64,000 nucleotides of DNA, from the NCBI GenBank assembly GCA_029834535.1, contig JAQMWT010000330.1:186001-250000 (forward strand), read 5' to 3'. Both the position numbers and the translations under genes were made by a program. Positions 20,068 to 43,417 of this stretch are shown piece by piece. The notes under the pieces are model-generated. The model was not told the origin of the DNA and searched no databases. It saw nothing but the letters and a program-made list of their open reading frames with translations. Numbering within the stretch: the first letter of the stretch is position 1; every line of letters begins with the position of its first letter. Origin of the DNA: Chrysophaeum taylorii. Taxonomy: Eukaryota > Sar > Pelagophyceae > Pelagomonadales > Pelagomonadaceae.

Positions 20068-20439
20068 CAAGTGCAGGCCAGTAAGTTCACCTAGTCCCAA
20101 TCTCTAACCCCAGTAAGTTCACGGTCCCGTTAAGTTCACCTAGTCCCAATCTCTAACCCCAGTAAAATTGGCGTAAACCCAATCTCTAACCCCAGTAAGT
20201 TCGGCGTAAACCCGCACCCACTCACCGCACTCTCCTTCGAGCTCGTCGCTCTCACCCCTGCCAATCTAAGCTGCTTTGATCCGCACACGCCGCTAAGCTT
20301 TGAGTTTACTCTAAAAGCCCCAGTAAGTTCACACTTGGTCTCAGTAAGTTCACCTGGTCACTAAGTTCACCTAGTCCCAATCTCTAACCTCCGTAAGTTC
20401 ACCTGGTTCCAGTAAGTTCACCTGGTCCCAGTAAGTTAA

Positions 20440-21035
20440 CCTATAGTGCGCGTGTAGACGCCGGGAGGGGGCTTATCGGTATTGCGCAGCACGTGTGGAG
20501 TAGGGTGGAGTCGTCGACCAAAAAGAGGATATCCTCGGGGTTGCCGATCGACAGAGAGCCACGTAGAGCTGGACGTGGCAGAAGACGGGCTTCGCCAAGA
20601 GGACGCCGACCTCGCGGGGCGTCTGGCCCTGGCTCTTGGTGATCGTTTGGCGTCGGCGGGCCTTAAGGGATACAGGTTGGAGGTGCCTCGGTGACAACAA
20701 CACGATCGATCATGTATCTGGTACCGTTGCAGTGGCCGTGCGACGGGTCGAGGTTGCGAAGACTTTAAGCTCGCGATCAAAGTCAGCATGCCGTTGGTTG
20801 TCAGGGAGTTGAAAACTCGACTCTTGAGAGCGAGGCGTCGTCTTCCGACCCAACCTAGTCGGCCGAAAAGAACTCCGACGCCTCGTCTCCGGGAAAAAAA
20901 GGCCGCGGTCATGCGCGCGTTGTCAGCATCGACAACATCGTTTCGACGGGGCGTGAGAATGGCGCGCTGAAAGAACCGCCGCGGGTCGTGGAAATAGTCT
21001 GCGAGGTCGCCGTAGACGGCTTGGAGGATCAATGC
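20440..21035 (-). pseudogene. PIF1-type helicase remnant, copy A
   Basis: The minus strand reads ILQAVYGDLADYFHDPRRFF then QRAILTPRRNDVVDADN. This matches the helicase segment in which Helitron or PIF1 proteins read 'ILTP-x-N-x-DV'. In other frames further on lie SQPRPVARPLQ and an INKSQGQT-like motif-V block that is clearer in copies C and D. Only the C-terminal third of a helicase is represented and frame changes are present, so this is a dead fragment. Confidence 0.65.
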
Positions 21036-21644
21036 CTCGCGGGCCTATCTGATCCTTACCCTAAATCGGGGGACAGACAAACAGACAGACAGGCTCGCTG
21101 TGCCCTCACCACCCTCACCCATGTCGCCGCCGCGGGGAACCCCGCCCAGGCCGCCCGATCCCAGCAGGACGTCACCCTTCGTCGCACATACGTCCGGCGG
21201 CAGCATGCGTACGACCTACGGGCGGGGCCCGTCCTCTCTTCGCCTGCCCCACGCCTCGGCGATGACCCCGACTAGGTCCCGCGTACTTATCTCCGCCCGT
21301 CAGGCACATCCCTCATACCCCACAAACCCACCCACATCCTTCATGCTCCCCACACACACCCCCCCCTCTTAGCAGTCGACATTTAGAGACAGACAGACAA
21401 ACATCCCCCTCTTAGCAGTCGACAAGTGCAGGCCAGTAAGTTCACCTAGTCCCAATCTCTAACCCCAGTAAGTTCACCTGGTCCCAGTAAGTTTCATATA
21501 AGTTCACCTGGTCAGTAAGTTCACCTAGCTCACACCAACTCCTTTGAGCTCGTCGCTCTCGCCTCCGCCAATCTAAGCTGCTTTGATCCGCACGCGCCGC
21601 CAACCTTTGAGTTCACCCTTTACTCTAAAAACCCCAGTATGTAC

Positions 21645-21990
21645 ACGATCGATCATGTATCTGGCACCGTTGCAGTGGCCGTGCGACGGGTCGAGGTTGC
21701 GAAGACATTAAGCTCGCGCTCAAAGTCAGCATCCCGTTGGTTGTCAGGGAGTTGAAAACTGTACTGTAAAGAGCGAGGCGTCGTCTTCCGACCCAGCCTA
21801 GTCAGCCGAAAAGAACTCCGACGCCTCGTCTCCGGGAAAAAAAGGCCACGGTCATGCGCGCGTTGTCAGCATCGACAACATCGTTTCGACGGGGCGTGAG
21901 AATGGCGCGCTGAAAGAGCCGCCGCGGGTCGTGGAAATAGTCTGCGAGGTCGCCGTAGACGGCTTGGAGGATCACTGTCTGGCTCTCGCG
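21645..21990 (-). pseudogene. PIF1-type helicase remnant, copy B (shorter)
   Basis: By eye this is close to 90% or more identical to the 3' two-thirds of copy A's coding block (21040-20700). It starts inside the same ILQAVYGDLADYF segment and stops near the conserved ACGATCGATCATGTATCTGG. The segment encoding the INKSQGQT motif and the C-terminus is absent. Non-functional. Confidence 0.6.
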
Positions 21991-22621
21991 CCTACCTGAT
22001 CCTTACTCGAGCGCCTACCTGATCCTTACCCTAAATCGAGGGACATACGCATTAGGCCGGGCTCGCTGTGCCCTCACCGCCCTCACCCATGTCGCCGCCT
22101 CGGGGAACCCCGCCCAGGCCGCCCGATCCCAGCAGGACGTCACCCTTCGTCGCACATACGTCCGGCGGCAGCATGCGTACGACCTACGGGCGGGGCCCGT
22201 CCTCTCTTCGCCTGCCCCACGCCTCGGCGATGACCCCGACTAGGTCCCGCGTACTTATCTCCGCCCGTCAGGCACATCCCTCATACCCCACAAACCCACC
22301 CACATCCTTCATGCTCCCCACACACACCCCCCCCTCTTAGCAGTCGACATTTAAAGACAGACGACCTACGGCCCGTAGACTGCGTAGTACGGGCGGGGCC
22401 CGTCCTCTCTTCGCCTGCCCCACGCCTCGGCGATGACCCCGACTAGGTCCCGCGTACTTATCTCCGCCCGTCAGGCACATCCCTCATACCCCACAAACCC
22501 ACTCACATCCTTCATGCTCCCCACACACACCCCCCTCTTAGCAGTCGACATTTAAAGACAGACAGACAAACAGACAAACAGACGAACAGACAAACAAACA
22601 TCTGTCGATTAGTAGTTAAAG

Positions 22622-23084: not shown

Positions 23085-23414
23085 TGTGGCAGTAACGCCC
23101 ATTTCTCCCACTTGCCTGCCTGCCACCTGACTTACCCTGGTTGTTGCTCTGGTATTGACCTTGCATTTATGGGGGGGTGTCACCTCGTCACCTTCACCTG
23201 CGCTTCCACTGGACCCAATGTACCGGGCATTTGTATTGCGTTCTTGCTGTCTTCTTGATATTACCCTCTTTTGATTGTCCGATTTCGTGATGGCGTGAGG
23301 TATTGCGCTGAGATCGGGCGTGTGGTGGTTTCACCCGCGGTCCGGGTTGGGAGGAAGGGTTGTTGAGGCCCCCGGTCCGGCCAGGAGGGGCGGGTATCTG
23401 AGAAAACCACTACA
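23085..23414 (+). repeat. 5' LTR
   Basis: Begins TGTGGCAGTAACG and ends AAACCACTACA. It pairs with 30647-30977. GCAGC lies just outside. Confidence 0.9.
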
Positions 23415-26400
23415 GTGGTCTCAGAAACGGGAATCGATAGTCCAACTCCCGGACTATCGATCTCCTGTTTTTCGGCGGCGAGTCGGTTCGTAACGGTCGA
23501 GTGAGTGCGAAGCCGACGCATTTGCGGGTGAAGATCCAGAGGATCACGGGTACCGCCGCGGGGTTCATTTTACGTGATTCGGATCGAACGGGGAGCGGAG
23601 TCACTACGACTCATTTCGCATACTTTTGCATATCGTAAGGCATATAAGTCCTAACCTAGCTCGCGCGAGGCAGACCACCTCCCTGACGGCGAGCGACAAC
23701 ACCGGGAAGGCCGTCCATAGTCTTCACGCGCAAGGCAAGTGCTTCCGTAAGACCAGCGCACCGGTACAGCGCGCAGTAGTCAGACGGCTGCCGGCAATTG
23801 TCGTCTGACGAAAAGAATACAACAAGTGAGTTGAGAACGTCCGGAACAAACCTATTATCCGGGCAAATCGCGGTCATGGCAGAGAGGCCAATGACAGAAC
23901 GATCGCAGTGGTTTCGGGACGCACAGGAGCGTCTGCAACGATTCAGTGCAGGGACTCCATTTGCGTCTATTGGAAGAACACCGTTCAGTACGCCCTTTCA
24001 ACGGCCGGAAGCCGAGGAAAGTGGCATCGGAAGAGAGGCAAGATCATCTGATAGCCTCGACAGCCCCCCAAGCGCGGTCATCCTTCCGGATCCACGCGGC
24101 GGCGAAGGGGGAGCTACGGTTGCGCCAGACGCAACCTCAAGACAAGGTGAGCCGACGTTCCCGTACGCACGACCCTACGAACGTGCGATGAATATTACGG
24201 AGTCATCTCGAGTGGAACCCGGACCGTTTACGGCGATGCGTGGACCAGAGGAGAGTGCACCTCCAAGGCCACCATCTGCGAATACGAGAGCGACAGATTT
24301 TTTGCGTGGATGTCGACCCCGAGGTTCTGCAGACCATCAACGAACGATTCGAGATGTACCAGTCGCAGATGGAGCAAGTCATACGTGAACTTGAGAACAC
24401 CCGCCGCGACGCTCAACAACAACGCTCAGAAAAGGAGCGACCGCGGATCGACAACGATCGACTTCGGCGAATGATGGAGGAATCCATGCGGGCGCATGCT
24501 CGAGAGGCACGGCCAACCTCTCCGAATGCTACGCGTGTTACGCCCGACGACGATGGTGACGCTGTATCGGCATTGACCGACGATCAGCCACCGCGAAGTC
24601 GACCGGAGCCTACCCCGCACCATTATACTGACCCCGGTTCAGCGCGTCCTCGTGACGAAGAAGAGATACTTCGTGTCAAGAAGGGAGCTGCTGGTATGAC
24701 ACGTATCACATTTTCGAATCTCACGGGGCAAATTACCAAGGACCGTGATGAGGTGGACGCGTGGTGGATGCAATTGCGGCGTATGATGGAAGGCAAGATT
24801 GATAAACCCTCAATAGCGATGAATGTGATTGGAGGCGAGTATCAACTCGCCCCTATGGAAGCTTATCGCAAGTGGGAAGTTGAACGGCCGCAGATGTGGA
24901 AACAATACAAGGATGGGACCATCACAATGAAAGAGTTGCGCCAGCATGATGAGGATTGTCTGGATGCTATGCAAGAGGCGACGAAGCTTCCTTGTCCACC
25001 TCGGGCTACGGTTGAGGAGCTTGAACGTGAATGGTTCAATTTACGGCAGGGGAATTTGTCATTGAATAAGTATATCGCGCGATGGGTGCAGAAATTCGGC
25101 CAGTGGAGAGCAATGTCAGGTCGCGATACTGATCCGGCTGCGTTCCGTTCGCACTTCATTGCTGGTCTCAATTCTGAGCGCTTGCGGACGAGCGTCGAAC
25201 TTGCTCAGGCCTCACCGCATATGAAAGCATCTACTCTCACCCTCAACGATGTCATTCAATTGACCATCCAAATTTCCAAGATTCTGGAAGCCAACCCTAC
25301 TGCCAACATCGAAGAGGCGATTAAGAAGGAGAAAGGAAAGGAGCACGCACCACGGATGAGGAGAGAGCAGCAGCAGCAGAGGCAGCAGTTGCAGCCAGTC
25401 CAACGGGTTGGTTATGTTACTGACTCGGGAGTTGGAACCTGGCTACCACAGGGGATAGATAACCATACGCGTCAAGCAATTACGACGTGCCTCAGTTGCG
25501 GCCGGCATGGTAGTTTTGACCACGACAACGGTGTGTGTCCTGTGCCGGACAATCCCTCGAGGAAGAGGCGTGCTGCTCAGACGTTGACGACTGCGGGTTT
25601 TCCAGCAACGCCAGAGGGACAGGAGCAATACCGACGGACGCTTTTAGCTGCAGCAGGACAGGCTTCAGTGACTCAGCTGGCGCCGCGCGTTGTGCAACAG
25701 CCGCAGGTGGTCTACACAGCAGCACAGGTGCCAGGTGCAGGTCAACAGCAGCTGGTTGCAGGCACTCAGCAGCGTTTGGTTGCAAGCTCTCAACAAAGGT
25801 GGTCCGAAGGCAGCCCGCAGTGCAGCGGACCGCTCAGACCTCGGTGCGTCTGGAGGATCTGACTACGGTTCTCAACACGATGAACTTGATTCGTCCGGCA
25901 CAGCAGACGGCTCCGCCGGGTAGAGGGCGACAGTCTCAGAGAGCGAACCCTAGCCAGCACAATGATGGTGTCGCCGCTCAGTGGCTTGAAGTGCTTGGCG
26001 AAGATCAGGATGACACTAAGCGAGCGGATTACTGCACTGTACAGTATTCTGAGCTCATGGAGGGCAACGTGTATGACGATGACGAGGTTGGGGGCGATGA
26101 TAATAGCTTCTCTGCAGAAGGCTATTCCCCTGGTGACCCCATGGAACCTCCTTCCTTTTTGGTCATCACTGAAGATGCATGGGTGGAGGAACAGGAGCAA
26201 AGTACCGAAGTGACTGGAGTTGCATCTAGAGTTCTCTCGGAAGACGAAGATAATCGTGACGAATTGGGTTATACCATTGTTCGTGTGGGACAAGATACCT
26301 TGGTTGCCATGGATATAGTGCCACCGAGGGACGACTGTGCCGAGCGCTATGTTGCTCACCCTTCCATCTCTTCGGATTTCGAGAATTTCTGCCCTCAGAC

Positions 26401-27639
26401 TGCGTTGAATATTACTTAGGATCCCGACCATCGTAAAAATAAAGCCGTAAGGTACGATGGCGCGAGATCCGCCTCTTTGACGTATGTGCCTGTGGCTATC
26501 TCTTCGCAAGATGGTTCGAAATATTCCATCATCGCTGCCGGTTTGGATGGCATGGCTGATTCCCCCTACATCGATCACCGCTTGTATCGCAAACTTGACC
26601 GTGACGGCAAAATCATCTATCTTCAGCCACTCCCTACTATTCGTGCTCTAAATGGATCAGGAGGTTCGGGAGCTCCTATTCGAGAATGGGTCATTCTCCG
26701 AATCTCCTTGGTGCCGACGACATCCATGCTGCTCATGTTCTTCGTTGGTCAAACGAATGGGCAGTTACTATTAGGAGCACGAGAATTACGACTCTTGGGT
26801 ACGATTTTGGATTATGCGACAGAGAGAGCTATTTTTCGGCGTTCTGAAGTGACCATTGGAGTTCTCAAGAATCGGACTTCCGCCTCGCCACAAGACCAGC
26901 ATGGAATTGTCCTTTACAATACAATGATGCATTCGATGCGACTCCGCAGGTAGTGCAGATGTTCCCGACAGCTAAGCTTGCTGTGCAATACGGAAATATC
27001 CAAACTTGGACGCCAGTTGGTAAACCGTGGAGTTATGACAGTCTATTGCGTTCTATTCGTATCAGAGCGAATCACCATCACATTCCTCCCGGTGATCAGA
27101 CTGCTGAAAAAGCTGAAGACCAACTTGAATGCCCTGCAGACGAGGAAGATATCACCCCTCATTTCGCGTACGTGACGAGTACTCGATTTCTTCTTCCAAG
27201 CCAACCGTACTTCTTGGAGATGGAGTGCGATGTGCCGCTGGAAAAGGGTCACGTATTCCGACCTTATCGGTCACTCCTCCAAGATCTCCACCTTGTACCT
27301 GGTTCCTATTCATCGTATTGTGCTGATGAGCCCAACGCAGTTCATGTGGCTGTGGGGCACATTGGTGACGAACCCATAGGTATCGACCCCGAAGTCCCGG
27401 TGGTCGAAGGCGAGATCATGCCGCATGAAGGATGTGTCAACATGCAGCTAGAAGCCACTGATGACGTGTGTCATGCCACTCTTACGGCTGCTGTTGACGA
27501 CGATGAAGTCGAGGAAGATGTCTTTAGTGACAGACCTCCTCCTCAGCCACCTCCAGATGAAGAAGTGAAAAAAACACCAGAAATGGAGATGGAGGCGATT
27601 GCTAAAGAGCTGCTATCTAAGCACGCCTCCTTGGTTTGG

Positions 27640-28505
27640 ATACCCATCACCTACACCTTTGTCGTCGTCTACTTTGCTGGCGCTGGAGGATCAACGTTGG
27701 GTATCCGGCGATGCAATGAACTATATGGCAGTTCATTTCGCATTGTCCTGGCTTTGGATGCTTGTCCTCAAGCCCAAGCCACCTTTGAACTCAATTTTCC
27801 GAAGATTCCCTATGTTTTGTATGAGTTGGGAAAATCTCATCGTCGCACATACGACTTGGTGTTGTCATATTTACACTCAGATTTTTGGAAGCACTCTTAT
27901 TTTCACGCCAGTCCGCCGTGTATCTATGGATCGACTGCCAATTTGCACTACAGGGACGCACGCAAGGGCGCTACTATTACTTCTTGGGTCCTGCGTCACT
28001 TCCGCAGCGCACCTTATGTGATTGGACGATGGACGCTCGAGCAGGAACCATCAGTAATCCCTTTTGTGCATCATCAATTTTATGTGCCGCGTATTGTTGA
28101 TTTCTATAGTATCACGCCAGAGCTGCTGTGCTCGCGCACGCGCCTACTTGCTTGCAATGTTCGCTTGGAACTGCCGTTATTATCGCGTGTACCACCGAAT
28201 TTACGGGACCGTTTTGGCCCAGCATTGGGATTTACAGGTGGTCACCCGCTCATTTTAGTGAGCACTTTCTCCTCTACGCGCCCGGCTATCGGCCCTGCCT
28301 TCACGGTGACGCGCAATAAGCTCCACTTAGGACCTCATTTTTCGAACACCCGTCCACTCACGTTGCAGATGCACCAAGAAATTATGACCGTTCCTGCTAC
28401 GTGGCAATGGGGTGCGACAGTTTCCGAGACAGTAGCTATGAATATGCTTGGCAGTATGGTGCCACCCGCGACTATGATGCGGATTGCGCGAGCAGTGCAC
28501 AATTC
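27640..28505 (+). other. C5-DNA-methyltransferase domain within the LTR retroelement
   Basis: The conserved motif series of cytosine-5 methyltransferases is visible in order: motif I FAGAGG (cofactor loop, about 27672); a motif II-like acidic position (ALDACPQA); motif IV SPPC (about 27910, with the catalytic cysteine); motif VIII-like SRTR (about 28131); motif IX RPLTLQMHQEI; and motif X LGSMVPPATM (about 28447). A clear ENV motif VI was not found. It lies between the protease-like and reverse-transcriptase regions. It is described here as a part of a fossil element; whether it was ever active is unknown. Confidence 0.8.
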
Positions 28506-30646
28506 GTTTGACCCTTCACTTCGAAATTTGGGTAAGTTGCGGAATATTGCAACGACTACGCTAGCCCAACCTGATCACCATATTCTACGGTTTTCACCTT
28601 TTGCTGTAGAGTCGCGCATTCCAACGCTCGACCCTGCCACTCGAAGTGTATCATGGATTGCGCCCGATGAACTCTATTCTCCTGCGAGTCCTGCACCATC
28701 AGCTGCTGCCACCACCACACCGCCACCACCTTCAGTTACATCGCCTGGGACGGCTTCATCTTTTGCAGGGGGCACCGTCGCCACTGCTGTTATGCAGAGC
28801 AGCCAAGTTGATAACCAGCCCTCCGCAACTGCTGAAGAAGAAGGCACCGCGAAAGAGCGACCAGCGTATTTCAATACGTACGACGTTCCGTGGGCGGACG
28901 CGCCTCACGACGAACATGGTCAATCTTCACCGGTGATGCCTCCTCATTTAGCGGATCAGGAGAGCATGCAGCTCATCCCTCCGACCGTCGCGCAGGTCGA
29001 CGGTGTGATGACTGAGTTGGGTATTACAGAGCATCCTGCTTTACATAATGACGAGAAGCTGATGATGAAGCATTTAATCTCGTATTCATGGGCATTTCTC
29101 GATGATGTGATGAGACCTGTTGATTCACCTGAAGTGACGCTCCGGTTCAAAGAAGAGAACCCGACTCCCGTCAAACTCTCGCCATATCGGTTGTCGAAAG
29201 AAAAGATAAAATGTTTGCGGATGCAGATTGAAGCATAGACCCGAGACGGAGTTATTCGTCCTGCGAATTCTCCGTGGGGTTTCCCTATTTTGATGTTGCC
29301 TAAGAAAGGTGCCGAGCCTGGCACTTCCAATGCTTACAGAGCAGCTGTCGACCTACGGCGCCTCAATGCATTGCTCAAGGATGATAGCTGGCCGAGTGTG
29401 AGCATGGCTGACGCGTTGATGTTTCTCATTGACAAGTTTGTCGTTCCAGTTTGGATATTCGTTGGGGCTATCACAATTTACGATTGTCGCTAGATGCACA
29501 AGATGTGGTCACCTTCACTAGTCCTCTGGGAGCGTACAGCTACATGCGTCTACCTGTGGGAGTCAAACCAGCCGGAAGTTTGTTTTGCAAGCAGTTGAAC
29601 ACTGACTTGTCGCAATGGTTATATCGTGATCTCGTGGCATATATCGACGATATTCTCGCCGGTCACGCAGATACAAAGAGTCACTTGCAGTGCCTTGTGC
29701 AAGTTATTCCCCATCTCGCCTTGAAGGGGTACAGCGCCAAGACCAAGAAGATTTCACCTTTCATGATGCGTACTGGCAAGCAACCCCTGTTACCACCCGA
29801 TTACAATCTTTTGAGTGAACAGCGTGATCTACCGCAATCACGTCATCAGATTTTGGTGGACTATAAGAACAAGTTTGAATTTTATAGTCGACTCGTTACA
29901 CGAGCTCATCAGAAAGCACAGGAGAGTCAAAAACTCAACTATGATGCCCACCAAATTGACATCCAGTTTTCCCCAGGTGATTATGTTCTGCGTTTCGTGC
30001 CTAAGACACGCCACAAGCTACGGCCCATTTGGCGCGGACCTTACATGGTTACTAGAAAGATCTCTCCCGTCGTTTATGAAAGTCAAGACGTTAACGACGA
30101 TGATGCTGAATCGGTTGTAGTATCTGTCCAACAGATTGTGCCTTTGAAAGTGCCAACCATCGACACTTCTTCAGCCCCTCTGCATTTACCCTCAGACCGC
30201 GACCGGTTCAAACATGGTAAGTTCGTGATTTTCAGGGTGAGAGGACGATCCAACGCGTGGAAGAAGCGTATCTATGTTGCCGAAGTCTACGAAGAATATG
30301 ACCACGACAATGATACAGTCGCGCTTCACTACTATACCGATTTGGGACCACGCGATGATCCTCGCGTCTTTGATCCTACTAAGCCTCTGGCTGAGCGGCG
30401 CTTAAGACCAGAATACAAAGATCCTGACGGAGGTAGCTTCACACGCCTACGACCAAACATGGAGGGCTGTGAACCCTGTGTGACTGATTTTCACCCGGAT
30501 GAAATCGATGTCCTCGTCACTAACTTCGGTCTCCACAGCAACAAAGTTCCTGCTGATGTAGCAGAACGAGCTTATCGTACCATTCGTGAGCGTGACCTTC
30601 GTCACCCTTGAAGTCGAGGACGACTTCATCTCAAGTAGGGGGCTCC

Positions 30647-30977
30647 TGTGGCAGTAACGCCCATTTCCCCCACTTGCCTGCCTGCCACCTGACTTACCCT
30701 GATTGTTGCTCTGGTATTGACCTTGCATTTATGGGGGGGGTGTCATCTCGACACCTTCACCTGCGCTTCCACTGGACCCAATGTACCGGGCATTTGTATT
30801 GCTTTCTTGCTGTCTTCTTGAAATTACCCTCTTTTGATTGTCCGATTTCGTGATGGCGTGAGGTATGGCGCTGAGATCGGGCGTGTGGTGGTTTCACCCG
30901 CGGTCCGGGTTGGGAGGAAGGGTTGTTGAGGCCCCCGGTCCGCCCAGGAGGGGCGGGTATCTGAGAAAACCACTACA
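30647..30977 (+). repeat. 3' LTR
   Basis: Begins TGTGGCAGTAACG and ends AAACCACTACA; followed by CAGC. It matches 23085-23414 except at about ten positions. Confidence 0.9.
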
Positions 30978-33907: not shown

Positions 33908-36900
33908 CTAGAAACTGCTGCACTCTATCTGCGACTCTTCCGAAACACTCACTGATGGGCCAACAGACCACTCCGCAGAGTGCTGCAGACCATTCGTCGC
34001 CTCTTGAAGCAGGTAGACAACCTCTTGTATGGATTCACAAACTCCTGGTCGGGTGCTGCGCAAAGCGATTGCCAGCGGGGTTTCGCCGTCGAGGTTACTC
34101 ATAGCCGCCGCCGCTCCATGCGACAGCAAGAGCTTGATTATTGTTGGACTGGATGCCCGTAGCTGCAACGATTCGATGTGTAGAGGGGTGTCGCCAAGAG
34201 CATTGGTCGCGTTCACGTCCGCACCATGTTTGAGCAAAAAATCAATGACAGCGACGACAACGGACGGCGCGCAGATACCCACGGCTTTGTGAAGCACGCT
34301 GTCGCGTTTTGAATCCACCGCCTGGATATCGGCGCCTAAGCGCACGAGGACGTGCAACGTGCGCATAAGTCGCCGTTCATCGGAGTGGTAATTGTAACCG
34401 CCCATGGCCCGATGGAAAGGCAGAATAGTAGCAGTAGAGCAGCGTAGAGTCCGAGCTGGAGCACCCTCGAAGCTTGCCAAGCCACAATCGGCAAGTATAG
34501 CCTCCAAGCTTGCGGCGTCACCCTCGACCGCGGCAGCAACAATACGGCTGCCAATCGACGTCGTCGATACGTGACCTGCCACTGTCGGCGCGATAGGTTG
34601 GTTCATCGCACCCGACAGCAAGTCCCATCGTGCTTGCCTCTCTCGCTCGAGCTGTAATTTGAGCTCGTGAATTTCCGAGACAGTCTGCTTATTCGCAACG
34701 TCGTCGAACGCTTGTCTGTTGTGCCCACCAGAACAGTGTTGAGATGACATCGGCGCAGTCGTCGCTTTCTTCGACTCGACGTCCTCCGTCGAGGCTGAAT
34801 GCGCTCTGTAGGCGCTGTGTTTCGTGTCGCTTTCTTGCAATGCAGCTTTCAAGAGCTCTTGCCAGTACGTGTCGCGCAACTTGATGAGCACGTTCACACG
34901 GCGCAAGTGGCGCGAGTTCGCGCGCCGCAGAGCGGCATCGAGCGCAGATGCGCTGTTCTGGTCGCGCCGCGCGAGCGCTTTGGATACCGTGCACAGTAGC
35001 TCGTCATCGCGGACTCGCAGCGCGTCCGCAATCTGGTCGAGCCGCTTCCTGGGTGAAGATGGGTTTCTCTTTGAAGCGTGAAGATTCTGTTGCTCGTGCG
35101 GTGGAGTTTGGTTGCATCCGTGGCGTCCTCTGGAGGTTGCCGCTGCGGTCGGCGCCACCGCCGTCAGCAACTTGACGCGCCTTGCGTCACAAAGCTGTTG
35201 CCAGTTTTGATGGTAGCGCCGAAACGCGCGATTGAATGTGCGCCAAACTTGCTGCACGAGACCTTTCAGCGCGCTGGCCACTGCCGAGTCTCGACGCCGC
35301 CACATTTGTTCATGCTTGTGCTCATTTTTTAGAGCAGTAATCGTGCGTTTATGTTCGAGTTTGAGCGCGTTCTCCCCTTCTGCGAGAGTCGAAGACATCG
35401 ATCGCGCATGAGTATCTTGGCAGTCAGCAATCGCCGCTGCGACTTTGTCGTCGTAAACACGACACAGCACGGCCTCGTGATCCGAAATGGCAGTTGAAAT
35501 GTCGTGCTCGCGTGCGTCGTCAAGTCGCGCTTCTTGGTCTTTGAGAGCCTTCGCGACGGTACTCGCTGTAGCGCGTTCACATTTCGCCACTGCGGCTTGG
35601 AGCAATCGCTCGTGGTCGGCCGTCAGCGTCGCTTCGCGCTTTGCTAACGCGTCTTCCAAAACTCTCTCGTGTGCCTCCCTAAGTTCGGCTTGCATTTCTT
35701 TGAGCGCCGATTTCCGGACTCTCTCATGCTCAGACATGGCAGTTGCTAGTGCACGTTCGTGTGTTTCATCAAATAACGCCTTCTGCTTCGCTGCCGATGA
35801 AGCAAGGGCAGTCTCATGCTCCGAGACGAGTGAACGGCGTTGATGCTCGAGCTGGCGCGCCATCTGCTCTTCGTGCTTCGCTGTCAATTCTCGTAGTTGA
35901 CGTGCCAGCTCCAGGGATACGTGCTCCTCGTGCTCTGACGACAAAGTTCGGTGTTGTTGCGCCAGTTTTGATTCCAGAGTAACATTGTGCTCCAACTCAA
36001 GTTGATTGCGCTGATGTGCCAGCTCTTGCGATAAGGTTTCGTGATATTGTTTGAGCTCTGTGTTCAAGCGCTCGTCGCGTTCTGACTCAAACTGCCGGCG
36101 CTGCTCCGTCAGTTCTCGTCTCAGACGCACCTCGTGCTCTGTGATGAGATATTGTTTTTGCCGATCAAGCTCGATAGTCAAGCTCCTTTCGTGTTCTGCC
36201 GTCAGCTTTAAACGTAGTTGATTCAGCTCGCGCACTAAAGTCTCTTCGTGCTCCAACGATTGCACTCGAAGCTGCCGCTCCAGTTCCTGCTTTAGGTGCT
36301 CTTGCTCACTCAATAGTGCTTTGCGTTGCTGCTCTAGCTCGCCTCTCATGCATTCACTTCGCATGGAGTCTAGAGATTGGCGTTGCTCGTCCAGCTCTCG
36401 TGCCACTTGGGCGCGGTGCTCGAAATTGAGTGCTCGAAGCTGCTCGTCGAGTGCACGAGTAAGTTCCTGCTCGTGCTCCGTCGCGAGCGTTTTACGCAGT
36501 GTCTCCAACTCACGGGTCACGTTACTTTCGTGTTCTGCCGTGAGCCTTCGGCAGTACTGATTTAGCGCCTGCGCCACGTGCTCGGTTTGATCTTGTAGCA
36601 GCTGTTGACGTTGCTCATCCAGTGCACGAGCCAGTAATTTGTCTTGATCTGAGGCAAGGGCCTGACGTTGCCTCTCCAATTCCCGAGCCAAGTTGCAATC
36701 GAAATCTACACTGAGCTCCTGGCTCCGTTCCTCGAGCTTCACAGCAAGCTTCTGTTCGAAGGTTTCCGTTAGGTGAGTGCGTTGCTGGTCCATCTCACGC
36801 GCTAAGTGCTCTGAGTGACCTGTGGCAAGCGCTTGGTGTTGTTCGCTAAGTGCGAGATCCAAGCGCTCCTCGTACTCTGCAACAAGATTTTCGCGCAGGG

Positions 36901-39900
36901 CGTCCAATTTCTGGGCCGCGTTGCTATTGTGCTCAACTGTCAGCTCGCAGCACTTCTGATTTAACGCCTCACTTTGCTCTTCCAGCAGCTGTTGACGTTG
37001 CTTGTCAAGTGCGCGCGCCAATTCTTTGTCGTGTTCTGACAAGAGGGTCTGACGTTGCATCTCCAAGTCGTGAGTCAAGGTGCGCTCAAAATCAACAGTA
37101 AGTTCCTGGTGTTGTTCCTCGAGCTTGACAACCAACGTGTGTTCGTGAATTTCCGTTAGCTGCTTACGTAGCTGGTCCATCTCATGCGCCATTTGTCCAG
37201 AGTGCTCTGAGGAGAGCGTTCGGCGTTGTTGATCCAGTGCGAGAGCTAAGCGCTCCTGGTGCTCTGTTACGAGCTCTTGGCGTAGTGTGTCAAGTTTCTG
37301 TGCCTCGCTACTATCGTATTCGGCCGTCAGCGCGCGACAATGCTGTTTTAGCGACTCGTTTTGCTCTACAAGCAGCTGATGGCGTTGCTTTTCAAGTGAG
37401 GCTGCCAACGTCTCGCGATGCTCTGACACGAGCATCTGGCGTTGCTTGTCTAACTCCCGACCCATGTTGCGATCGAAGTCCGCATTGAGCTTTCGGCACT
37501 GCTGCTCGAGCTCCAAAGCCAGCCTCTTTTCATGCATCTCCAACAGCTGGGTGCGTTGCTCACCCATCTCATGCGCCAACTGTTCAGAGTTCTCTGAGGC
37601 GAGCGTTCGGCGTTGTTGATCCAGCGCGAGAGCTAAGCGCTCCTGGTGCTCTGTTACGAGCTCTTGGCGTAGTGTGTCAAGTTTCTGTGCCTCGCTACTA
37701 TCGTGTTCGGCCGTCAGCTCGCGACAACGCTGTTTTAGCGACTCGTTTTGCTCTACAAGCAGCTGATGGCGTTGCTTTTCAAGTGAGGCTGCCAACGTCT
37801 CGCGATGCTCTGACACGAGCATCTGGCGTTGCTCGTCTAACTCGCGACCCATGTTGCGATCGAAGTCCGCGTTGAGCTTTCGGCACTGCTTCTCGAGCTC
37901 CAAAGCCAGCCTCTTTTCGTGCATCTCCAACAGCTGGGTGCGTTGCTCACCCATCTCACGCCCCAATTGTTCAGAGTGCTCTGAGGCAAGCGTTCGGCGT
38001 TGTTCATCCAGCGCAAGAAACAAGCGCTCCTGGTGCTCTGTCACGAGTTTTTGGCGCAAAGTTTCCAATTCCTCGGCCGCATTGTTATCGTGTTCGGCCG
38101 CCAGCTCACGACGATGCTGATTTAGCGCCTCGTTTTGCTTTTCCAGCAGCTCTTGACGTTGCTCGTCCAGAGCCCGTGCCAACGTTGTGTTATGTTCTGA
38201 AACGAGTGCCTGAAGTTGCGTCTCCAACTCGCGAGTCAATTTGCACTCGAAATCAACAGCGAGTTCCTGCTGTCGTTCCTCAAGCTTGACTACCAACGTC
38301 TGTTCGTGAAATTCTGCAAGCTGCATACGAAGCTGGTCCATCTCATGCGCCAAGCGTACGGAGTGCTCAGAGGCTAGCGATCGGCGCTGTTCGTCCAGTA
38401 CGAGATTCAGGCGCTCTTGGTGCTCGGTCAAGAGTGTTTGACGCAGTGCGTCCAACTCCTGGCCCAACATGCATTTATGCTTTGCGGCTAGATCAACAGA
38501 GTGCTGATTCATCGTCTCCGTTTGCTCTTCCAGCAGCTGTTGACGTTGCTCGTCAAGTGCGAATGTCAGTGCAGCACTATGCTCCGATGCCAGCGTCTGA
38601 CGTTGCCGGTCCAACTCGCGAGCCAAGTTGCGATCAAAATCCGCAGTGAGTTTGTAGCGCAAATCGTCAAGCATGGCAACCAACTTCTTCTCGTGGAATT
38701 CCGTAAGGTGGATGCGCTGATGGTTCATCTCACGCACCAGGTGCTCGGAGTGTTCAGAGGCTAGCGATTGGCGTTGCTCGTCCAGAGCGAGAGCCAAGGA
38801 CTCCTGGTGCTCTGTCACGAGCGCTTCGCGGTATTTGTGGAGCTCGTCCGCCAAGCGTTCTTCGTTCTCTACCGAAAGCGCAGCCTGGCGGTCCGAGATG
38901 GCTGCCATTGTGCGAGCTTCGTGAACTGCTGTCAACGCATCGTGTTGCTCGGATAATGCGCGCGCCAATGCTTCGTCGTGGGCTGTCGAGAGCACCATGC
39001 GAAGGTCGGCAAGATTGCGTGCTCCCTCATCGTTGAATTTCTTTTTAATCTCCACCTCGCGCTTAGTGACGGCGGCATGAAAGGCATCGTCAAACTCTCG
39101 CCTGAGCTTGGTTTCTTTTGCGGCCAAGGAACTCTCGACCTCGCGCTTGTGGTGCTCCGTCCATGATGCATCGCGCTCCTCGATTGCTGTCGCCAAAATT
39201 TGCTCGTAGGCCTGCAGGACGATAATCTTTTGCTTCTCGGTGGCGCCTGCGAGGTCTTCGGCGTGTGTTGCTTGTTGCGCGGCGAGTGCGGCATCCAATT
39301 TTAAGTGACATCGATCCGTAGTTGCTGCTTCGCACTCGGCAAGAGCAACACCAAGAGCCTGTTCGTGCTTTCGGACAAGGGAGGTTTCGCAATCCTCGAT
39401 AGCCGCTGCAATCTTTAGCGCATGCGCTTCCGCCATCGATGTCTTCTGGGTCGCGAGTGCTGCGGTCAAGTTCCCTTCATGCATAGCTTGAAGTTCCTTC
39501 TCTCGCGCCTGGACGGCGACCTCAAGTGCCTTGGCGTGTGCTGCCGCCGCCCGCGTACGTTCGCCTTCAACCGCATCATTCAGCGCGCGCTTGTGCTCAT
39601 CGTCCCTCTCGTGAAGAGCAGTCATCAGCGCCCGCGTGTGTCTAGAAGTCAGCGATTCTTCCTGATGCCGCAGCGCAGCATTGAGTGTATCATCGTGTTT
39701 GGCTTGAAGGTTGGCCTTGGCAGCAGCGTGGCTCGCTTCGAGGGCGGTCGTCGCGGCTTCGCTCGCAGCCATCGCTGCGTTGTGTTCCTCGCTTCTTGCT
39801 CGAAGAGCCGACTCGAGGGCGTCGGCAAGTTCGCGGTCCTTGTCCTTTGCCAGCTTATCGATATCAAAATGCCGCTGGTAGCGTTCGTGCTCGAGGCTCT

Positions 39901-42900
39901 GAACAGCTTCAGCAGTGCGCGCTTGGGCTTCGCGGAGCTCGACGTTGAGCCTCTTTTCCTCTGTCTCCAGCCTATGGCGCGCCTCAGCGGCATGCGCTTG
40001 GGCTTTGCTTAGCTCGGTGTTGAGCCTCGTCTCCTCTGTCTGCAGCCTCTGGTGCGCCTCTGCGGCTCGAGCGTGGGCTTGGCCGAGCTCGGCATTAAGT
40101 CTCGCACCCTCCATCTCGAGCCTTTGGCGTGCCTCGGTGGCATCGGCGCGGGCGCGATCGAGGTGATCTCGGAGCTCGTTGGTCGCCAACTCATGGTCTG
40201 AGAGCGTCCGAGCGTGCTCGACGCGGAGCGCCGCCTCGGCCGAGCGCAGAAGCTCCTCTCGTTGTTTCGCCTTCTCTGCGGCCTGGCGTGCTTCATCGAC
40301 AAGGCGCTCGTGGTGCGGCACTTCGATTTCCTCTTCCGGCGGCGGAGGTGCTGTCGCAGCGTCGCGCGTCTCGGTCTTACGAAGCCCAGCGCTTCGCAGC
40401 TCGCCAGCGGCCCTCGCGGCGACGGCAAGCGCGCGGTCGCGATCGGCGTCGCGTTCGCGCGTCGTCTCATGCCAGGTCTCGATCTGCCGCAGCACCGATT
40501 TGGCCGTGGCGGCGGCGTCGTTGGCCATCCGCGCCTCCCAACGCCGCGCCGCAGCGTCGAGGTCTGCGCGCCCCCGTTGACGTTCGGCGGCGACGAGACG
40601 CGCGGACCTGTTGTGGCGCGCCTCGCGGTGCCAGGCCGTCCACACCGCGCGCATCGTTGAGCCCCTGGAACGCGCCAATGCAGCGGCCACGGCACGCCGG
40701 CGGGCGGTGGCACGGCGCCATCGCGTCCAGGCCGTGCGTTGGAATGACACGCCGCGCTGCCGAGAGAGCACGGCCAGACGCCGGGCGCCGGTCCGTCCAA
40801 GTGCAATCGTCGCCGCCGCGCGTCCTGCAGCGAGCGCCGCGCCGGCAGCTGCGTCTCGGTGGAGCGTCGCCTCGAGGCGGTCCTGCTTGCGGGCCTCGAT
40901 CTCGGCCGCGTGGCGCTCAGCGAGTTCCTCCATGAGTCCCATGGCGGCCTTAAGGCGGTCGTCGTCTCTGGGCTTGGCCTCGGCCTGGCGGGCGCGCGCG
41001 TCGGCGGCACGCGCGGCGGCGCGAACGGCTTCGTGCGGCGCACGCTCGAGCGCGTCGCGCTTCTGCTTGTCCAATTTGGAGAGCGCCGCGTCGCGGTAGG
41101 CTTGGAGCTCGTCGGCGAGCGTCTTGAGCTTGGCGTGCCAAATCCCGCGCTTCTCCATCTTGTTCCCGTGGGCACGCAGCGCGTCACGCACGGCGTCGTG
41201 CGGCGCACACGCGAGCGTGTTTTGAATGTGGTCGTCGAGCGTCGCGAGAGCCACTTCCCGGTACGCTCGAAGCTCGAATTTGAGGGCGTCGAGGCACTTA
41301 GCATTGCGCTGTGGTGTTGCTGCTGCTGCTGCTGCTGCTATGTTGCTGTTGGTACGCAGCGCTTCACGGATGGCGTCGTGTGGCTTACTTTGGATCGAGC
41401 TTCGCAGGCGGTCGTCGAGTGTAGCGAGCGCGGCTTCACGGTAGGCCTGGATTTCCCCCGTGAGCGACTCAACCTTGGCGCGCTGTGCCGCCTTGCTGTC
41501 GTTGGCGCGCAGCGCGTTGCGCACGTCGTCGTGCGTCGCGCGCTCGAGCTCGTCGCGTACAACACCTCGGTTGTTGTTGTTGTTGTGGTCGTCGAGCGCA
41601 GCGAGAACCACCTCGCGGTAGGCCTCGAGCTCCTCCGTGAGCGATCTAGCGCGGTGCGCCGCCTCGGTCTCGCTGGTGCGCAGCGCGTCGCGCACGTCGT
41701 CGTGCGGCGCATTTTCGAGGTTTTTGCGCGCGCTGTCGTCGAGCGCGGCGAGCGCGAGCTCGCGGTACTTCCCGAGCTCCCGCTCGAGCGACGCGATTCG
41801 TTCCGTTCGCCGCGCCAGCTTGGTCGTGGCGATAACGCGCAACGCGTCGCGCACAACGTCGTGCGGCGCGAGCGGGGTAAGGAGATCGCCGTCGTCGAGC
41901 ACGCCGAGCGCGATTTCGCGGTAGGCGTCGAGGTCGGCTACGTGCGTCTCGAGCTTGGCGTCGAAGGCGTCGCGCTGCGCTTTGAGCTCCCTTTGGAGCG
42001 CGACCGCCTGGCGCTGCCAGGCCTCCAGTACGCGCTGCATGTCCTCGACCTCCGCACGCGTGGCACCAGCTTCGACGGCGGCCTTGAGGGTCGCGATCTC
42101 GTGCTGCTGTTTGGTGCAGGTCTCCCGGTATTCGCTCAAGCGGTGGTGCAATCGGTGCTCGAGGCGCGCGAACTCGTCCTGCTGCCTGGCGAGCTTGCCC
42201 TGGTGGTCGTACAAGACGCCCGAGAGGTTTGCCTCGAGCTGTGCCTTTTCGTCGCGGTTGGCCGCTTCGAGTGCGGCGAGCTTTTTGCGAAGCGCGGAAT
42301 TTTCGTCGGCGGTGACGACGCGCTGCTTGCACAAGTCGTCGAACTCCTTCTCGCGTTCGACGAGGCGCGCGTGCAAGCCCTGGATCTCGGCGCTGACCTT
42401 GGTGAGGTCGGCGTCGTCGACGTTGACGACGGTGTGGTTCTTAATCTTGCGAGCTCGCGACGCGTACATCAAACTCACCAAACTCTGGCGCTTGTAGGCC
42501 GCGTCGGCTCGCAGCGCGGTGATCATGAGCGTCTTGGAATTGCCGCCGAGCGAGTCCTTGAGGAGGTGGGTAAGTTTGCTGTTGCGGTAGGGGGGGATCC
42601 TCCGCTCCGACGATGACGTGGTGGTGCTGCTGCTGAGGGCGGCCAGCACGTCACCCAAAAGCGCGAGGCTGCGGTTTATGTTCTGGGCCTCGACGAGCGT
42701 CTCGCCCTCCGCGCCGCTCAACCTCACGCGTTCCGAGCCGGCGAGGTCGACCAAGTTGAGCTTTCCGGTCGTGGCGACCTCGGAATCGCGCGACTGGACG
42801 TGCAAGGTCAGGATCGCATGGCTCCTCGAGGAGTGATCGTTGCATTTGGTGGCGGCGGTCGCGCGCGCGCGGTCGCCGACGTTGACCAAATCTCGGACGT

Positions 42901-43417
42901 CGCTTTCGGTCCGGACGGCGATCTTCAAGTTGTCGGGTCCGGCGAGAAAGACCCCCGAGGCCGTGTCGCGGATCTCGATCTTCTTCGAGGATTCCCCGAG
43001 GAGGTTGCGGAAGGTGTTGTTGTAGAGCTCGACGTAGGACACGTGGACGAGGAACATGGCGTCGCGACTCTTCGCCTGACGCTCGATCTCCGCGAAGAGG
43101 TCCCTCACGGCGCGCGGCGTGATCCCCGGGGCCGTCGCCGAGCCCATCATCGTGTAGCTCTTGCCGCTCCCCGTATGTCCGTAGGCGAAGATGGTCGCGT
43201 TGTAACCCCTGGTACACGAGACGACGAGGGGCCTGGCCCACTCGTAGACCTCCGGCTGCGTCGCCGAAGGCCCTAGCACGCGGTCGACGTGAAAAAGTTT
43301 GCGCTTCTTCGCATCGACAACCTCCACGGTCTTTTCCCCCCGCGAAAACAAGCACGCCTCGGCCTCGGCGTCGGGTGGCTCGGGCCGAATCCGCGCGATG
43401 ACCTTGACGTGCTCCAT
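33908..43417 (-). CDS. Giant kinesin with repetitive coiled-coil tail and C-terminal ankyrin repeats
   Basis: A single 3169-residue frame. The motor domain (about 1-330) is complete: P-loop GHTGSGKS (80-87), switch I NDHSSRSH (193-200), switch II LVDLAGSE (222-229) and YRNSKLTHLLKDSLGG (277-292). An N-terminal motor predicts plus-end microtubule movement. The tail from 340 to about 2950 is Glu/Lys/Leu/Gln-rich coiled coil. A Trp/Arg block at about 870-945 (TAWTRWRRATARRR, RAVWTAWHREARHNR) resembles Sfi1/centrin-binding repeats. About residues 1500-2200 are 129-residue tandem repeats. Ankyrin-like repeats follow at about 2955-3150 (LVRLGADIQAVDSKRDSVLH; LLKHGADVNATNALGDTPLH). The size and architecture are unusual. 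A long-range spacer, flagellar or basal-body role is speculation. No introns are seen in 9.5 kb. Confidence 0.9.
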   Translation of the reverse strand: MEHVKVIARIRPEPPDAEAEACLFSRGEKTVEVVDAKKRKLFHVDRVLGPSATQPEVYEWARPLVVSCTRGYNATIFAYGHTGSGKSYTMMGSATAPGITPRAVRDLFAEIERQAKSRDAMFLVHVSYVELYNNTFRNLLGESSKKIEIRDTASGVFLAGPDNLKIAVRTESDVRDLVNVGDRARATAATKCNDHSSRSHAILTLHVQSRDSEVATTGKLNLVDLAGSERVRLSGAEGETLVEAQNINRSLALLGDVLAALSSSTTTSSSERRIPPYRNSKLTHLLKDSLGGNSKTLMITALRADAAYKRQSLVSLMYASRARKIKNHTVVNVDDADLTKVSAEIQGLHARLVEREKEFDDLCKQRVVTADENSALRKKLAALEAANRDEKAQLEANLSGVLYDHQGKLARQQDEFARLEHRLHHRLSEYRETCTKQQHEIATLKAAVEAGATRAEVEDMQRVLEAWQRQAVALQRELKAQRDAFDAKLETHVADLDAYREIALGVLDDGDLLTPLAPHDVVRDALRVIATTKLARRTERIASLERELGKYRELALAALDDSARKNLENAPHDDVRDALRTSETEAAHRARSLTEELEAYREVVLAALDDHNNNNNRGVVRDELERATHDDVRNALRANDSKAAQRAKVESLTGEIQAYREAALATLDDRLRSSIQSKPHDAIREALRTNSNIAAAAAAATPQRNAKCLDALKFELRAYREVALATLDDHIQNTLACAPHDAVRDALRAHGNKMEKRGIWHAKLKTLADELQAYRDAALSKLDKQKRDALERAPHEAVRAAARAADARARQAEAKPRDDDRLKAAMGLMEELAERHAAEIEARKQDRLEATLHRDAAAGAALAAGRAAATIALGRTGARRLAVLSRQRGVSFQRTAWTRWRRATARRRAVAAALARSRGSTMRAVWTAWHREARHNRSARLVAAERQRGRADLDAAARRWEARMANDAAATAKSVLRQIETWHETTRERDADRDRALAVAARAAGELRSAGLRKTETRDAATAPPPPEEEIEVPHHERLVDEARQAAEKAKQREELLRSAEAALRVEHARTLSDHELATNELRDHLDRARADATEARQRLEMEGARLNAELGQAHARAAEAHQRLQTEETRLNTELSKAQAHAAEARHRLETEEKRLNVELREAQARTAEAVQSLEHERYQRHFDIDKLAKDKDRELADALESALRARSEEHNAAMAASEAATTALEASHAAAKANLQAKHDDTLNAALRHQEESLTSRHTRALMTALHERDDEHKRALNDAVEGERTRAAAAHAKALEVAVQAREKELQAMHEGNLTAALATQKTSMAEAHALKIAAAIEDCETSLVRKHEQALGVALAECEAATTDRCHLKLDAALAAQQATHAEDLAGATEKQKIIVLQAYEQILATAIEERDASWTEHHKREVESSLAAKETKLRREFDDAFHAAVTKREVEIKKKFNDEGARNLADLRMVLSTAHDEALARALSEQHDALTAVHEARTMAAISDRQAALSVENEERLADELHKYREALVTEHQESLALALDEQRQSLASEHSEHLVREMNHQRIHLTEFHEKKLVAMLDDLRYKLTADFDRNLARELDRQRQTLASEHSAALTFALDEQRQQLLEEQTETMNQHSVDLAAKHKCMLGQELDALRQTLLTEHQERLNLVLDEQRRSLASEHSVRLAHEMDQLRMQLAEFHEQTLVVKLEERQQELAVDFECKLTRELETQLQALVSEHNTTLARALDEQRQELLEKQNEALNQHRRELAAEHDNNAAEELETLRQKLVTEHQERLFLALDEQRRTLASEHSEQLGREMGEQRTQLLEMHEKRLALELEKQCRKLNADFDRNMGRELDEQRQMLVSEHRETLAASLEKQRHQLLVEQNESLKQRCRELTAEHDSSEAQKLDTLRQELVTEHQERLALALDQQRRTLASENSEQLAHEMGEQRTQLLEMHEKRLALELEQQCRKLNADFDRNMGRELDKQRQMLVSEHRETLAASLEKQRHQLLVEQNESLKQHCRALTAEYDSSEAQKLDTLRQELVTEHQERLALALDQQRRTLSSEHSGQMAHEMDQLRKQLTEIHEHTLVVKLEEQHQELTVDFERTLTHDLEMQRQTLLSEHDKELARALDKQRQQLLEEQSEALNQKCCELTVEHNSNAAQKLDALRENLVAEYEERLDLALSEQHQALATGHSEHLAREMDQQRTHLTETFEQKLAVKLEERSQELSVDFDCNLARELERQRQALASDQDKLLARALDEQRQQLLQDQTEHVAQALNQYCRRLTAEHESNVTRELETLRKTLATEHEQELTRALDEQLRALNFEHRAQVARELDEQRQSLDSMRSECMRGELEQQRKALLSEQEHLKQELERQLRVQSLEHEETLVRELNQLRLKLTAEHERSLTIELDRQKQYLITEHEVRLRRELTEQRRQFESERDERLNTELKQYHETLSQELAHQRNQLELEHNVTLESKLAQQHRTLSSEHEEHVSLELARQLRELTAKHEEQMARQLEHQRRSLVSEHETALASSAAKQKALFDETHERALATAMSEHERVRKSALKEMQAELREAHERVLEDALAKREATLTADHERLLQAAVAKCERATASTVAKALKDQEARLDDAREHDISTAISDHEAVLCRVYDDKVAAAIADCQDTHARSMSSTLAEGENALKLEHKRTITALKNEHKHEQMWRRRDSAVASALKGLVQQVWRTFNRAFRRYHQNWQQLCDARRVKLLTAVAPTAAATSRGRHGCNQTPPHEQQNLHASKRNPSSPRKRLDQIADALRVRDDELLCTVSKALARRDQNSASALDAALRRANSRHLRRVNVLIKLRDTYWQELLKAALQESDTKHSAYRAHSASTEDVESKKATTAPMSSQHCSGGHNRQAFDDVANKQTVSEIHELKLQLERERQARWDLLSGAMNQPIAPTVAGHVSTTSIGSRIVAAAVEGDAASLEAILADCGLASFEGAPARTLRCSTATILPFHRAMGGYNYHSDERRLMRTLHVLVRLGADIQAVDSKRDSVLHKAVGICAPSVVVAVIDFLLKHGADVNATNALGDTPLHIESLQLRASSPTIIKLLLSHGAAAAMSNLDGETPLAIALRSTRPGVCESIQEVVYLLQEATNGLQHSAEWSVGPSVSVSEESQIECSSF
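36851..38950 (-). repeat. 387-bp in-frame tandem repeats in the kinesin tail
   Basis: The word around CCAG-TGCGAG-x-x-x-x-AAGCGCTCCTGGTGCTC recurs with an exact 387-bp period. Landmarks lie at 36847, 37234, 37621, 38008, 38395 and 38782. The unit encodes 129 residues of coiled coil, including DTLRQELVTEHQER, LDQQRRTLAS and KRLALELEQQC. The copies at about 37234-38008 are nearly identical, so that expansion is recent; outer copies are more diverged. 387 is divisible by three, so each step keeps the frame. Confidence 0.9.

What the first reader, a model, noticed from the sequence alone, without database searches (positions are those of the whole stretch)
27640..28505. Cytosine-5 DNA methyltransferase domain inside an LTR retroelement
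Between the protease-like and reverse-transcriptase regions of a Ty3/Gypsy-like element lies a domain with motifs I (FAGAGG), IV (SPPC), VIII-like (SRTR), IX and X (LGSMVPP) of C5-methyltransferases. As far as I recall, retroelements with such a domain have been reported in a charophyte and in dinoflagellates; if this host is a stramenopile, it would be a further independent case. Such an element might mark its own copies with methylation, but that is speculation. The element here is a broken fossil.
Basis: partly seen in the sequence, partly recalled or inferred. Interest (0 to 1): 0.92.

Follow-up and report, generated by a model that had tools for sequence, protein, structure and literature searches.

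The report
DNA methylase carried by retrotransposons
A family of "copy-and-paste" mobile elements, present in many copies in what looks like an algal genome, carries its own DNA-methylating enzyme, and a second, unrelated family in the same genome carries a different one at a matching place, which suggests that the enzyme helps such elements to spread.

Summary
Window 27616-28504 encodes a C5-cytosine methyltransferase domain (PF00145 E 1.8e-8, over cut-off) between a protease-like region and the RT of a broken Ty3/Gypsy element with 97%-identical LTRs. It is a family trait: 20 of 21 copies of this family and 10 of 11 of a second Gypsy family (domain 39% identical) show PR-MT-RT. Purifying selection is strong (Gypsy Ka/Ks 0.07-0.08). 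About 200 places in 71 Mb, a lower bound. The host has DNMT2- and DNMT5-like genes. Retrotransposon DNMTs are known (LINE, DIRS, one Gypsy; PMC5890265), so this is a new variant of a known kind; I saw no clear report of a Copia case. Likely role: methylating the element's own new DNA copy, unproven; integrated copies show no CpG decay. The host, probably an ochrophyte alga, was not identified.

The parts
23085..23414 (+). 5' LTR (TG...CA), preceded by CAGC (4-bp target duplication)
   Evidence: (97.3% identical to the 3' LTR over 332 columns)
24192..25862 (+). Gag open frame with a CX2C..H..C knuckle-like motif
   Evidence: (Retrotrans_gag E 0.0054, below cut-off)
26420..26953 (+). Protease-like region (frame differs from those of gag and MT); no Pfam match
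   Evidence: similar to the PR region of other copies
26848..29238 (+). 796-aa open frame holding the MTase domain and the start of RT; ends in a stop
27616..28504 (+). C5-cytosine methyltransferase domain; motifs I, IV, VI, VIII, IX-like and X at 27673, 27910, 28036, 28132, 28300 and 28447
   Evidence: PF00145 E 1.8e-8; motif places; alignment A1
28760..29050 (+). MT-RT spacer with lowered synonymous divergence between two families and an unusually stable predicted RNA fold (unexplained)
29433..30611 (+). RT core (YIDD at 29640) joined by a deletion to the integrase C-terminus and a C-terminal domain of about 170 aa
   Evidence: RVT_1 E 2.6e-9, Integrase_p58_C E 0.001 below cut-off; comparison with L017
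30627..30646 (+). Polypurine tract-like AAGTAGGGGGCTCC directly before the 3' LTR
   Evidence: read
30647..30977 (+). 3' LTR, followed by CAGC

Best explanation
A Ty3/Gypsy lineage acquired a C5-cytosine methyltransferase between protease and reverse transcriptase, before two of its families (domain 39% identical) and a relative in another data set split, and has kept it under selection. Made as part of Pol, it would be packed with RT in the particle (inferred) and methylate the element's own double-stranded cDNA before or at integration (inferred), so that the new copy arrives carrying the mark of host DNA; the host's DNMT5-like enzyme could then maintain or lose it (inferred). Shown: domain, position, copy number, purifying selection, conserved catalytic motifs, a parallel in Copia. 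Not shown: catalysis, substrate, benefit. Identity and capture: about 0.95; this mechanism: about 0.4.
For: PF00145 over cut-off in the window and in L016, L017, L018; PR-MT-RT in 30 of 32 distinct Gypsy copies examined; MT Ka/Ks 0.080 (bootstrap 0.048-0.117) in Gypsy A and 0.073 (0.042-0.107) in Gypsy B; within Gypsy A, Ka is lower in MT (0.086-0.102) than in the spacers on either side (0.315, 0.179); SPPC in 24 of 26 and [LI]EQE in 25 of 26 distinct Gypsy copies surveyed; MT and RT rank three lineages alike, as expected if they travelled together; a different MTase directly after the protease of Copia; placement in Pol beside RT. Precedent: SymbioDIRS DNMTs methylate CG de novo in yeast, while the KnitGypsy and SymbioLINE ones gave no methylation there, which its authors call inconclusive (PMC5890265).
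Against: No excess of C-to-T at CpG in integrated copies: 18 of 2460 CpG opportunities against 40 of 5497 at non-CHG CpH and 8 of 1167 at CHG. CpG o/e in element loci is 1.01-1.13, lower than the window's flanks (1.24-1.28) but not depleted. Motif VI reads EQ, not the usual EN (recalled). The AlphaFold model is poor (pLDDT 43.5, pTM 0.42) and its fold search gave only weak Rossmann-type hits, none at E 0.001. No activity, expression or methylome data.
Confidence: 0.45

Rival explanations
1. The enzyme acts in trans on host DNA or competing elements (for example silencing loci or blurring the host's marks), and self-methylation is not the point.
For: About 200 places could supply much enzyme; two different MTases in one genome suggest a benefit tied to this host's epigenome.
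Against: Pol enzymes act mostly inside the particle, a cis setting (inference); CpG o/e in the window's flanks is 1.24-1.28, no sign of CpG loss there.
Confidence: 0.15
2. The substrate is RNA (the genomic RNA or its tRNA primer), as in DNMT2, helping packaging, priming or stability.
For: No CpG decay in DNA copies; profile hits to DNMT2 among others at E 0.55-0.65, not significant; PMC5890265 raises RNA for SymbioLINE.
Against: The best profile hit is a chain titled Cytosine-specific methyltransferase at E 0.0084, and HaeIII methylase scores like DNMT2, so the profile does not favour an RNA enzyme.
Confidence: 0.15
3. The domain has lost catalysis and is kept as a nucleic-acid- or SAM-binding module of the polyprotein.
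For: Motif VI EQ instead of EN; P0001 has SPSC, not SPPC; low-confidence fold.
Against: In alignment A1 (9 sequences of Gypsy A, Gypsy B and P0001) the motif IV Cys, motif VI Glu and both motif VIII Arg are invariant; the Copia enzyme keeps LPCQH and VEN in 26 of 26 distinct copies whose best match covers them.
Confidence: 0.12
4. Self-limitation or host benefit: the mark makes new copies silent on arrival, lowering the damage so that the element persists.
For: Raised in PMC5890265; a DNMT5-like gene is present that could keep a mark once set.
Against: No expression or methylation data; no CpG decay.
Confidence: 0.1

Closest known systems
KnitGypsy-Dnmt3 (Klebsormidium nitens; PMC5890265, parts 1-4 of 7 of the text read)
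   Same: C5-MTase inside Pol of an LTR Gypsy element, several intronless copies, Ka/Ks below 0.2.
   Different: There a DNMT3-related domain and a repeat arrangement like that of DIRS (figure legend); here two plain direct LTRs in the window copy and a divergent MTase whose DNMT class was not settled. The place of the domain in KnitGypsy Pol could not be seen (figure not held).
SymbioLINE-Dnmt and SymbioDIRS-Dnmt3 (dinoflagellates, same paper)
   Same: Hundreds of retrotransposon-borne C5-MTases in one genome.
   Different: Other retroelement orders (LINE, DIRS); the Copia elements there lack a DNMT domain, here Copia elements have one.
P0001, a 2086-aa Gypsy polyprotein of unnamed origin (sources lgn, ena)
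   Same: MT, RT, RNase H and IN in this order, and a shared C-terminal domain (29% over 170 aa); MT 32-35% identical.
   Different: Not from the window's record, a long extra segment between MT and RT, SPSC in motif IV; PF00145 not reached at E 0.01.
Dam-like adenine MTases of DIRS elements (PMC5890265; PMC6338049 passages)
   Same: A retroelement carrying a DNA methylase.
   Different: Different enzyme class and element order.

Membership tests
C5-cytosine methyltransferase (PF00145) | Profile score over curated cut-off | tested here: met
   34.6 bits vs 22; L016 30.8, L017 28.5, L018 33.5; L052 23.5; P0001 not reached at E 0.01
C5-cytosine methyltransferase (PF00145) | Motif IV Pro-Cys nucleophile, motif VIII Arg pair, motif X (recalled) | tested here: met
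C5-cytosine methyltransferase (PF00145) | Motif VI Glu-Asn-Val (recalled) | tested here: inconclusive
   Glu kept, followed by Gln: LEQE, IEQE, LEQI
C5-cytosine methyltransferase (PF00145) | Class I MTase fold | tested here: inconclusive
   Model pLDDT 43.5; only weak Rossmann-type matches, none at E 0.001
Ty3/Gypsy LTR retrotransposon | LTRs, and RT-RNase H-IN order | tested here: met
   LTRs in the window; RVT_1, RT_RNaseH, Integrase_H2C2, rve (rve below cut-off) in this order in L017; the window copy itself lacks RNase H and IN core
Ty1/Copia (second carrier) | IN before RT; RVT_2 | tested here: met
   In one copy, L053: RVT_2 E 1.6e-38 at 1686-1933 after a weak rve at 1016-1110 (E 0.0061, below cut-off) and MTase at 349-475; the other 27 copies are assigned by PR and MT similarity
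KnitGypsy-Dnmt3 | Domain of the DNMT3 family | not tested
   No tree with reference DNMTs was built. No chain named DNMT3 among the 7 PDB hits at E 1
KnitGypsy-Dnmt3 | DIRS-like repeat structure | tested here: not met
   Two direct LTRs with CAGC flanks in the window copy
Active retrotransposon DNMT | De novo methylation by the isolated domain | not testable with these tools
   needs expression

The most novel reading that the evidence does not exclude
In this alga the standing DNA methylase is DNMT5, a maintenance type, and the de novo methylation of the genome comes mainly from LTR retrotransposons, which captured C5-MTases at least twice (Gypsy, Copia), each time between protease and the next Pol enzyme. 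Not excluded: of the 30 best PF00145 places fetched, the 2 that are not elements are DNMT2- and DNMT5-like. But the scan scored 123 of 474 candidates and ignores introns, not all of the other 91 places were assigned, two of them that looked unlike the elements (C57, C260) could not be read, and no methylome was seen.
Probability: 0.13. Interest if true: 0.88.

Novelty: new variant of a known kind. Interest (0 to 1): 0.72.

Why it matters
It adds what looks like a further host lineage to the short list of retrotransposons that carry cytosine methylases, and gives two carriers of different LTR orders in one compact genome, both with the enzyme directly after the protease. That convergence argues that the enzyme pays, and makes a testable system: which nucleic acid is methylated, and whether elements can supply de novo methylation in an organism that has a DNMT5.

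Tried and rejected
Rejected: chance motif match (E 1.8e-8, and selection); MTase unique to this fossil. Sought and not found: a close viral or bacterial source (viral contigs: 101 and 85 pattern matches, none a relative by tblastn, for A1 and A2; genome contigs, A1 only: 32, none); a stand-alone relative of the Gypsy MT domain (none of 2437 candidates at E 0.001); any relative of the Copia MT (none of 3598). These searches need shared words or patterns and miss distant kin. Gypsy and Copia MTs show no similarity to each other (hhalign probability 0.1%; BLASTP nothing better than E 3); weak evidence for separate capture, since both profiles are shallow. Led nowhere: Rfam and tRNA scans of the window; fold comparison; a paper search by assembly size. 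The second fold job (A2) was not finished and is not used. Not done because these requests did not complete: host rRNA (RF01960), counts of Gypsy and Copia elements without MT (PF17917; PF07727) and two weak DNMT places. A tree with named DNMTs was not built. Results against my reading: no CpG decay in Gypsy A; in Copia the CpG transition rate is even lower than at non-CHG CpH (4 of 712 against 19 of 1260); in Gypsy B it is slightly higher (8 of 3751 against 9 of 6404), too few to weigh. Rows dropped or doubled: L052 and L054 are the same copy, as are L038 and L053 and the window and L001; counts of copies here are after removing these doubles.

Full report
Observation. The window lies in an unnamed assembly of 70.8 Mb in 697 contigs. 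Between two LTRs (23085-23414, 30647-30977; 97.3% identical; CAGC on both outer sides) lie gag, protease-like, MTase, RT and integrase-end sequences on the + strand. The 796-aa frame 26848-29238 matches Pfam DNA_methylase at E 1.8e-8 in two stretches, with motifs I, IV, VI, VIII, IX-like and X in order (motif names recalled). The copy is a fossil: gag, protease-like, MT and RT parts are in different frames, a stop ends the MT frame, and the RT end, RNase H and integrase core are missing by comparison with L017. The MT frame itself has no stop.

A family trait. The frame has 66 matching stretches in the genome, at 57 places after merging neighbouring pieces by eye (a lower bound, 57 of 1501 first-look candidates scored). 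A second set of Gypsy families, met through PF00145, gave 117 places with the MT of L052 as query, 78-100% identical to it (117 of 1060 candidates scored); L052's MT is 39% identical to the window's. I examined 32 distinct Gypsy copies (the window and L002-L021; L052/L054 and L055-L064): 30 have PR-MT-RT on one strand; L021 and L064 have MT-RT with no PR hit (L064 begins at the MT). Pfam finds MTase, RT, RNase H and integrase in this order in L017. LTR-like repeats 99% identical flank two further copies (L018, L021; none was found within the stretches held of L016 and L017), so some insertions are recent. Some copies hold long open frames over gag to pol; none is singled out here.

A second carrier. 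Of the 30 loci that one search returned, 28 are another element (28 of 28 match the MT of L053), L022 and L023 being host genes. L053 (the same copy as L038) carries, in one frame, a protease-like region, a C5-MTase (PF00145 E 1.1e-7), integrase (rve E 0.0061, below cut-off) and a Copia RT (RVT_2 E 1.6e-38). Of 28 distinct copies, 27 have PR before MT; L041 shows MT alone; IN is seen after MT in 3, one of them with RT (most stretches held end before it). The Copia MT keeps LPCQH and VEN in 26 of 26 distinct copies whose best match covers them and has no detectable similarity to the Gypsy MT. So two LTR orders in one genome each hold a C5-MTase after the protease, most simply by separate capture; deep common ancestry of the two domains cannot be excluded with shallow profiles. 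Together 117 + 57 + 28 gives about 200 places.

Selection. Between families the Gypsy MT has Ka/Ks 0.080 (L002/L016), 0.070 (window/L016) and 0.073 (L052/L064), the Copia MT 0.089 (L053/L033) and 0.107 (L053/L025), bootstrap upper limits 0.117, 0.106, 0.107, 0.128 and 0.160; eight Copia pairs range from 0.089 to 0.158. Ks is high (0.5-1.6), so ratios are approximate. In Gypsy A the RT ratio is lower still (0.021-0.034) and the PR-like region similar (0.088); the PR-MT and MT-RT spacers are higher (0.219, 0.375), the latter partly because Ks is low there. Between close copies ratios are 0.14-0.21 (L002/L003, L002/L008), but 0.64 and 0.96 for L016/L017 and L016/L018, from very few changes. Of 26 distinct Gypsy copies surveyed, SPPC is kept in 24 (L009 SPSC, L020 lost) and [LI]EQE in 25.

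Relatives elsewhere. A search of 5.8 billion proteins with the MT part of a Gypsy polyprotein gave one cluster, P0001, of 1376 candidates: a Gypsy polyprotein of unnamed source with MT, RT, RNase H and IN. MT and RT order the three lineages alike (Gypsy A-B, A-P0001, B-P0001: MT 40.9, 31.8, 34.8%; RT 63.9, 45.5, 46.3%), which fits one old capture in Gypsy. No relatives in viral contigs (A1, A2) or prokaryote contigs (A1).

Host. L022 is DNMT2-like (PDB chain 1g55, DNMT2, E 3.9e-39). L023 matches at E 3e-143 the PDB chain 7r76, titled DNA repair protein Rad8, which I recall to be Cryptococcus DNMT5; its helicase part was not read. Beside the DNMT2-like gene lies a light-harvesting-like protein whose best PDB match is VCPI-6 (E 3.7e-18; recalled as eustigmatophyte), followed by PCPI-8, FCP8 and peridinin-type proteins. 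This makes a red-lineage, probably ochrophyte alga likely. The species is not known.

Does it mark its own copies? If integrated copies were heavily CpG-methylated and decayed as in vertebrates (recalled), CpG transitions would be in excess. They are not: Gypsy A 18 of 2460 at CpG, 8 of 1167 at CHG, 40 of 5497 at other CpH (15 copies, private changes only). CpG o/e is 1.01-1.13 in element loci and 1.24-1.28 in the window's flanks. There is no positive control in this genome, so this argues only against lasting, mutagenic CpG methylation; methylation of short-lived cDNA, of other contexts or of RNA remains open.

Mechanism. I judge cDNA methylation most likely (0.4), as proposed for DIRS elements in PMC5890265 (parts 1-4 of 7 read). 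In that paper two SymbioDIRS DNMTs methylated CG in yeast, while the KnitGypsy one, the nearest precedent here, gave none, called inconclusive. The Copia parallel strengthens the case that a Pol-borne MTase benefits LTR elements, which make double-stranded cDNA before integration.

Novelty. PMC5890265 reports LINE, DIRS and one Gypsy case and says that the Symbiodinium Copia elements lack DNMTs. PMC12344493 (passages only) mentions 'LTR Copia and DIRS' as previously reported, citing that paper, where I saw Gypsy and DIRS; it may be a slip or an unseen case. PMC6338049 (passages) mentions methylase-bearing Gypsy and DIRS elements, adenine and cytosine types together, in groups including stramenopiles, so a stramenopile cytosine case may already be hinted at. 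Passages seen in PMC9998398, PMC11244446, PMC12477816, PMC3145265 and PMC10538959 gave no further case. My ten paper searches listed none by title; subscription journals and preprints were not covered, and the reports of DNMT-RT links that PMC5890265 cites as its references 3 and 7 were not read. Hence: new variant of a known kind.

Side lead. Around the MT-RT spacer of Gypsy A (L002/L016) Ks is 0.17-0.71 in the 40-codon windows starting at codons 1568-1704, against 0.96-2.6 or saturation in the other windows, and the predicted RNA fold is stable in both sequences folded (window z -3.5; L016 z -3.8; 0 of 200 shuffles each). But only 1 of 91 pairs shows compensation, Gypsy B shows no clear patch, and sliding windows find other stable stretches, near the start of MT in both and in the gag part of L016.

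Noticed in passing
window 28760-29050 (L016 6740-7020): Spacer between MT and RT in Gypsy A: synonymous sites conserved and a stable predicted RNA fold; contains GCAGGGGGCACC, like the tract before the 3' LTR (by eye). A second priming site or packaging signal is conceivable.
   Followed up: partly
L053 and L024-L051: Ty1/Copia-type elements with a different C5-MTase after the protease.
   Followed up: yes
L023 (G000:C621), L022 (G000:C634): Host DNMT5-like and DNMT2-like genes; the DNMT5-like frame is reported as 2086 aa, only its first part was read.
   Followed up: partly
window 30100-30611 and P0001 C-terminus: A shared domain of about 170 aa after integrase (29% identical, E 4e-17) without any Pfam match.
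   Followed up: partly
window 26540-26660: The protease-like region reads LDGM where D[ST]G is usual (by eye, recalled motif); the Copia one reads IDGG.
   Followed up: no
L020: MT only 52-61% identical with lost catalytic motifs while RT is still 87.5% identical: MT decay, perhaps by a frameshift.
   Followed up: no
window 33908-43420, - strand: 3170-aa open frame: kinesin motor at the start, tandem repeats of 387 bases, ankyrin repeats near the end.
   Followed up: no
window 20076-22562: Cluster of direct repeats with GTAAGTTCACC units.
   Followed up: no
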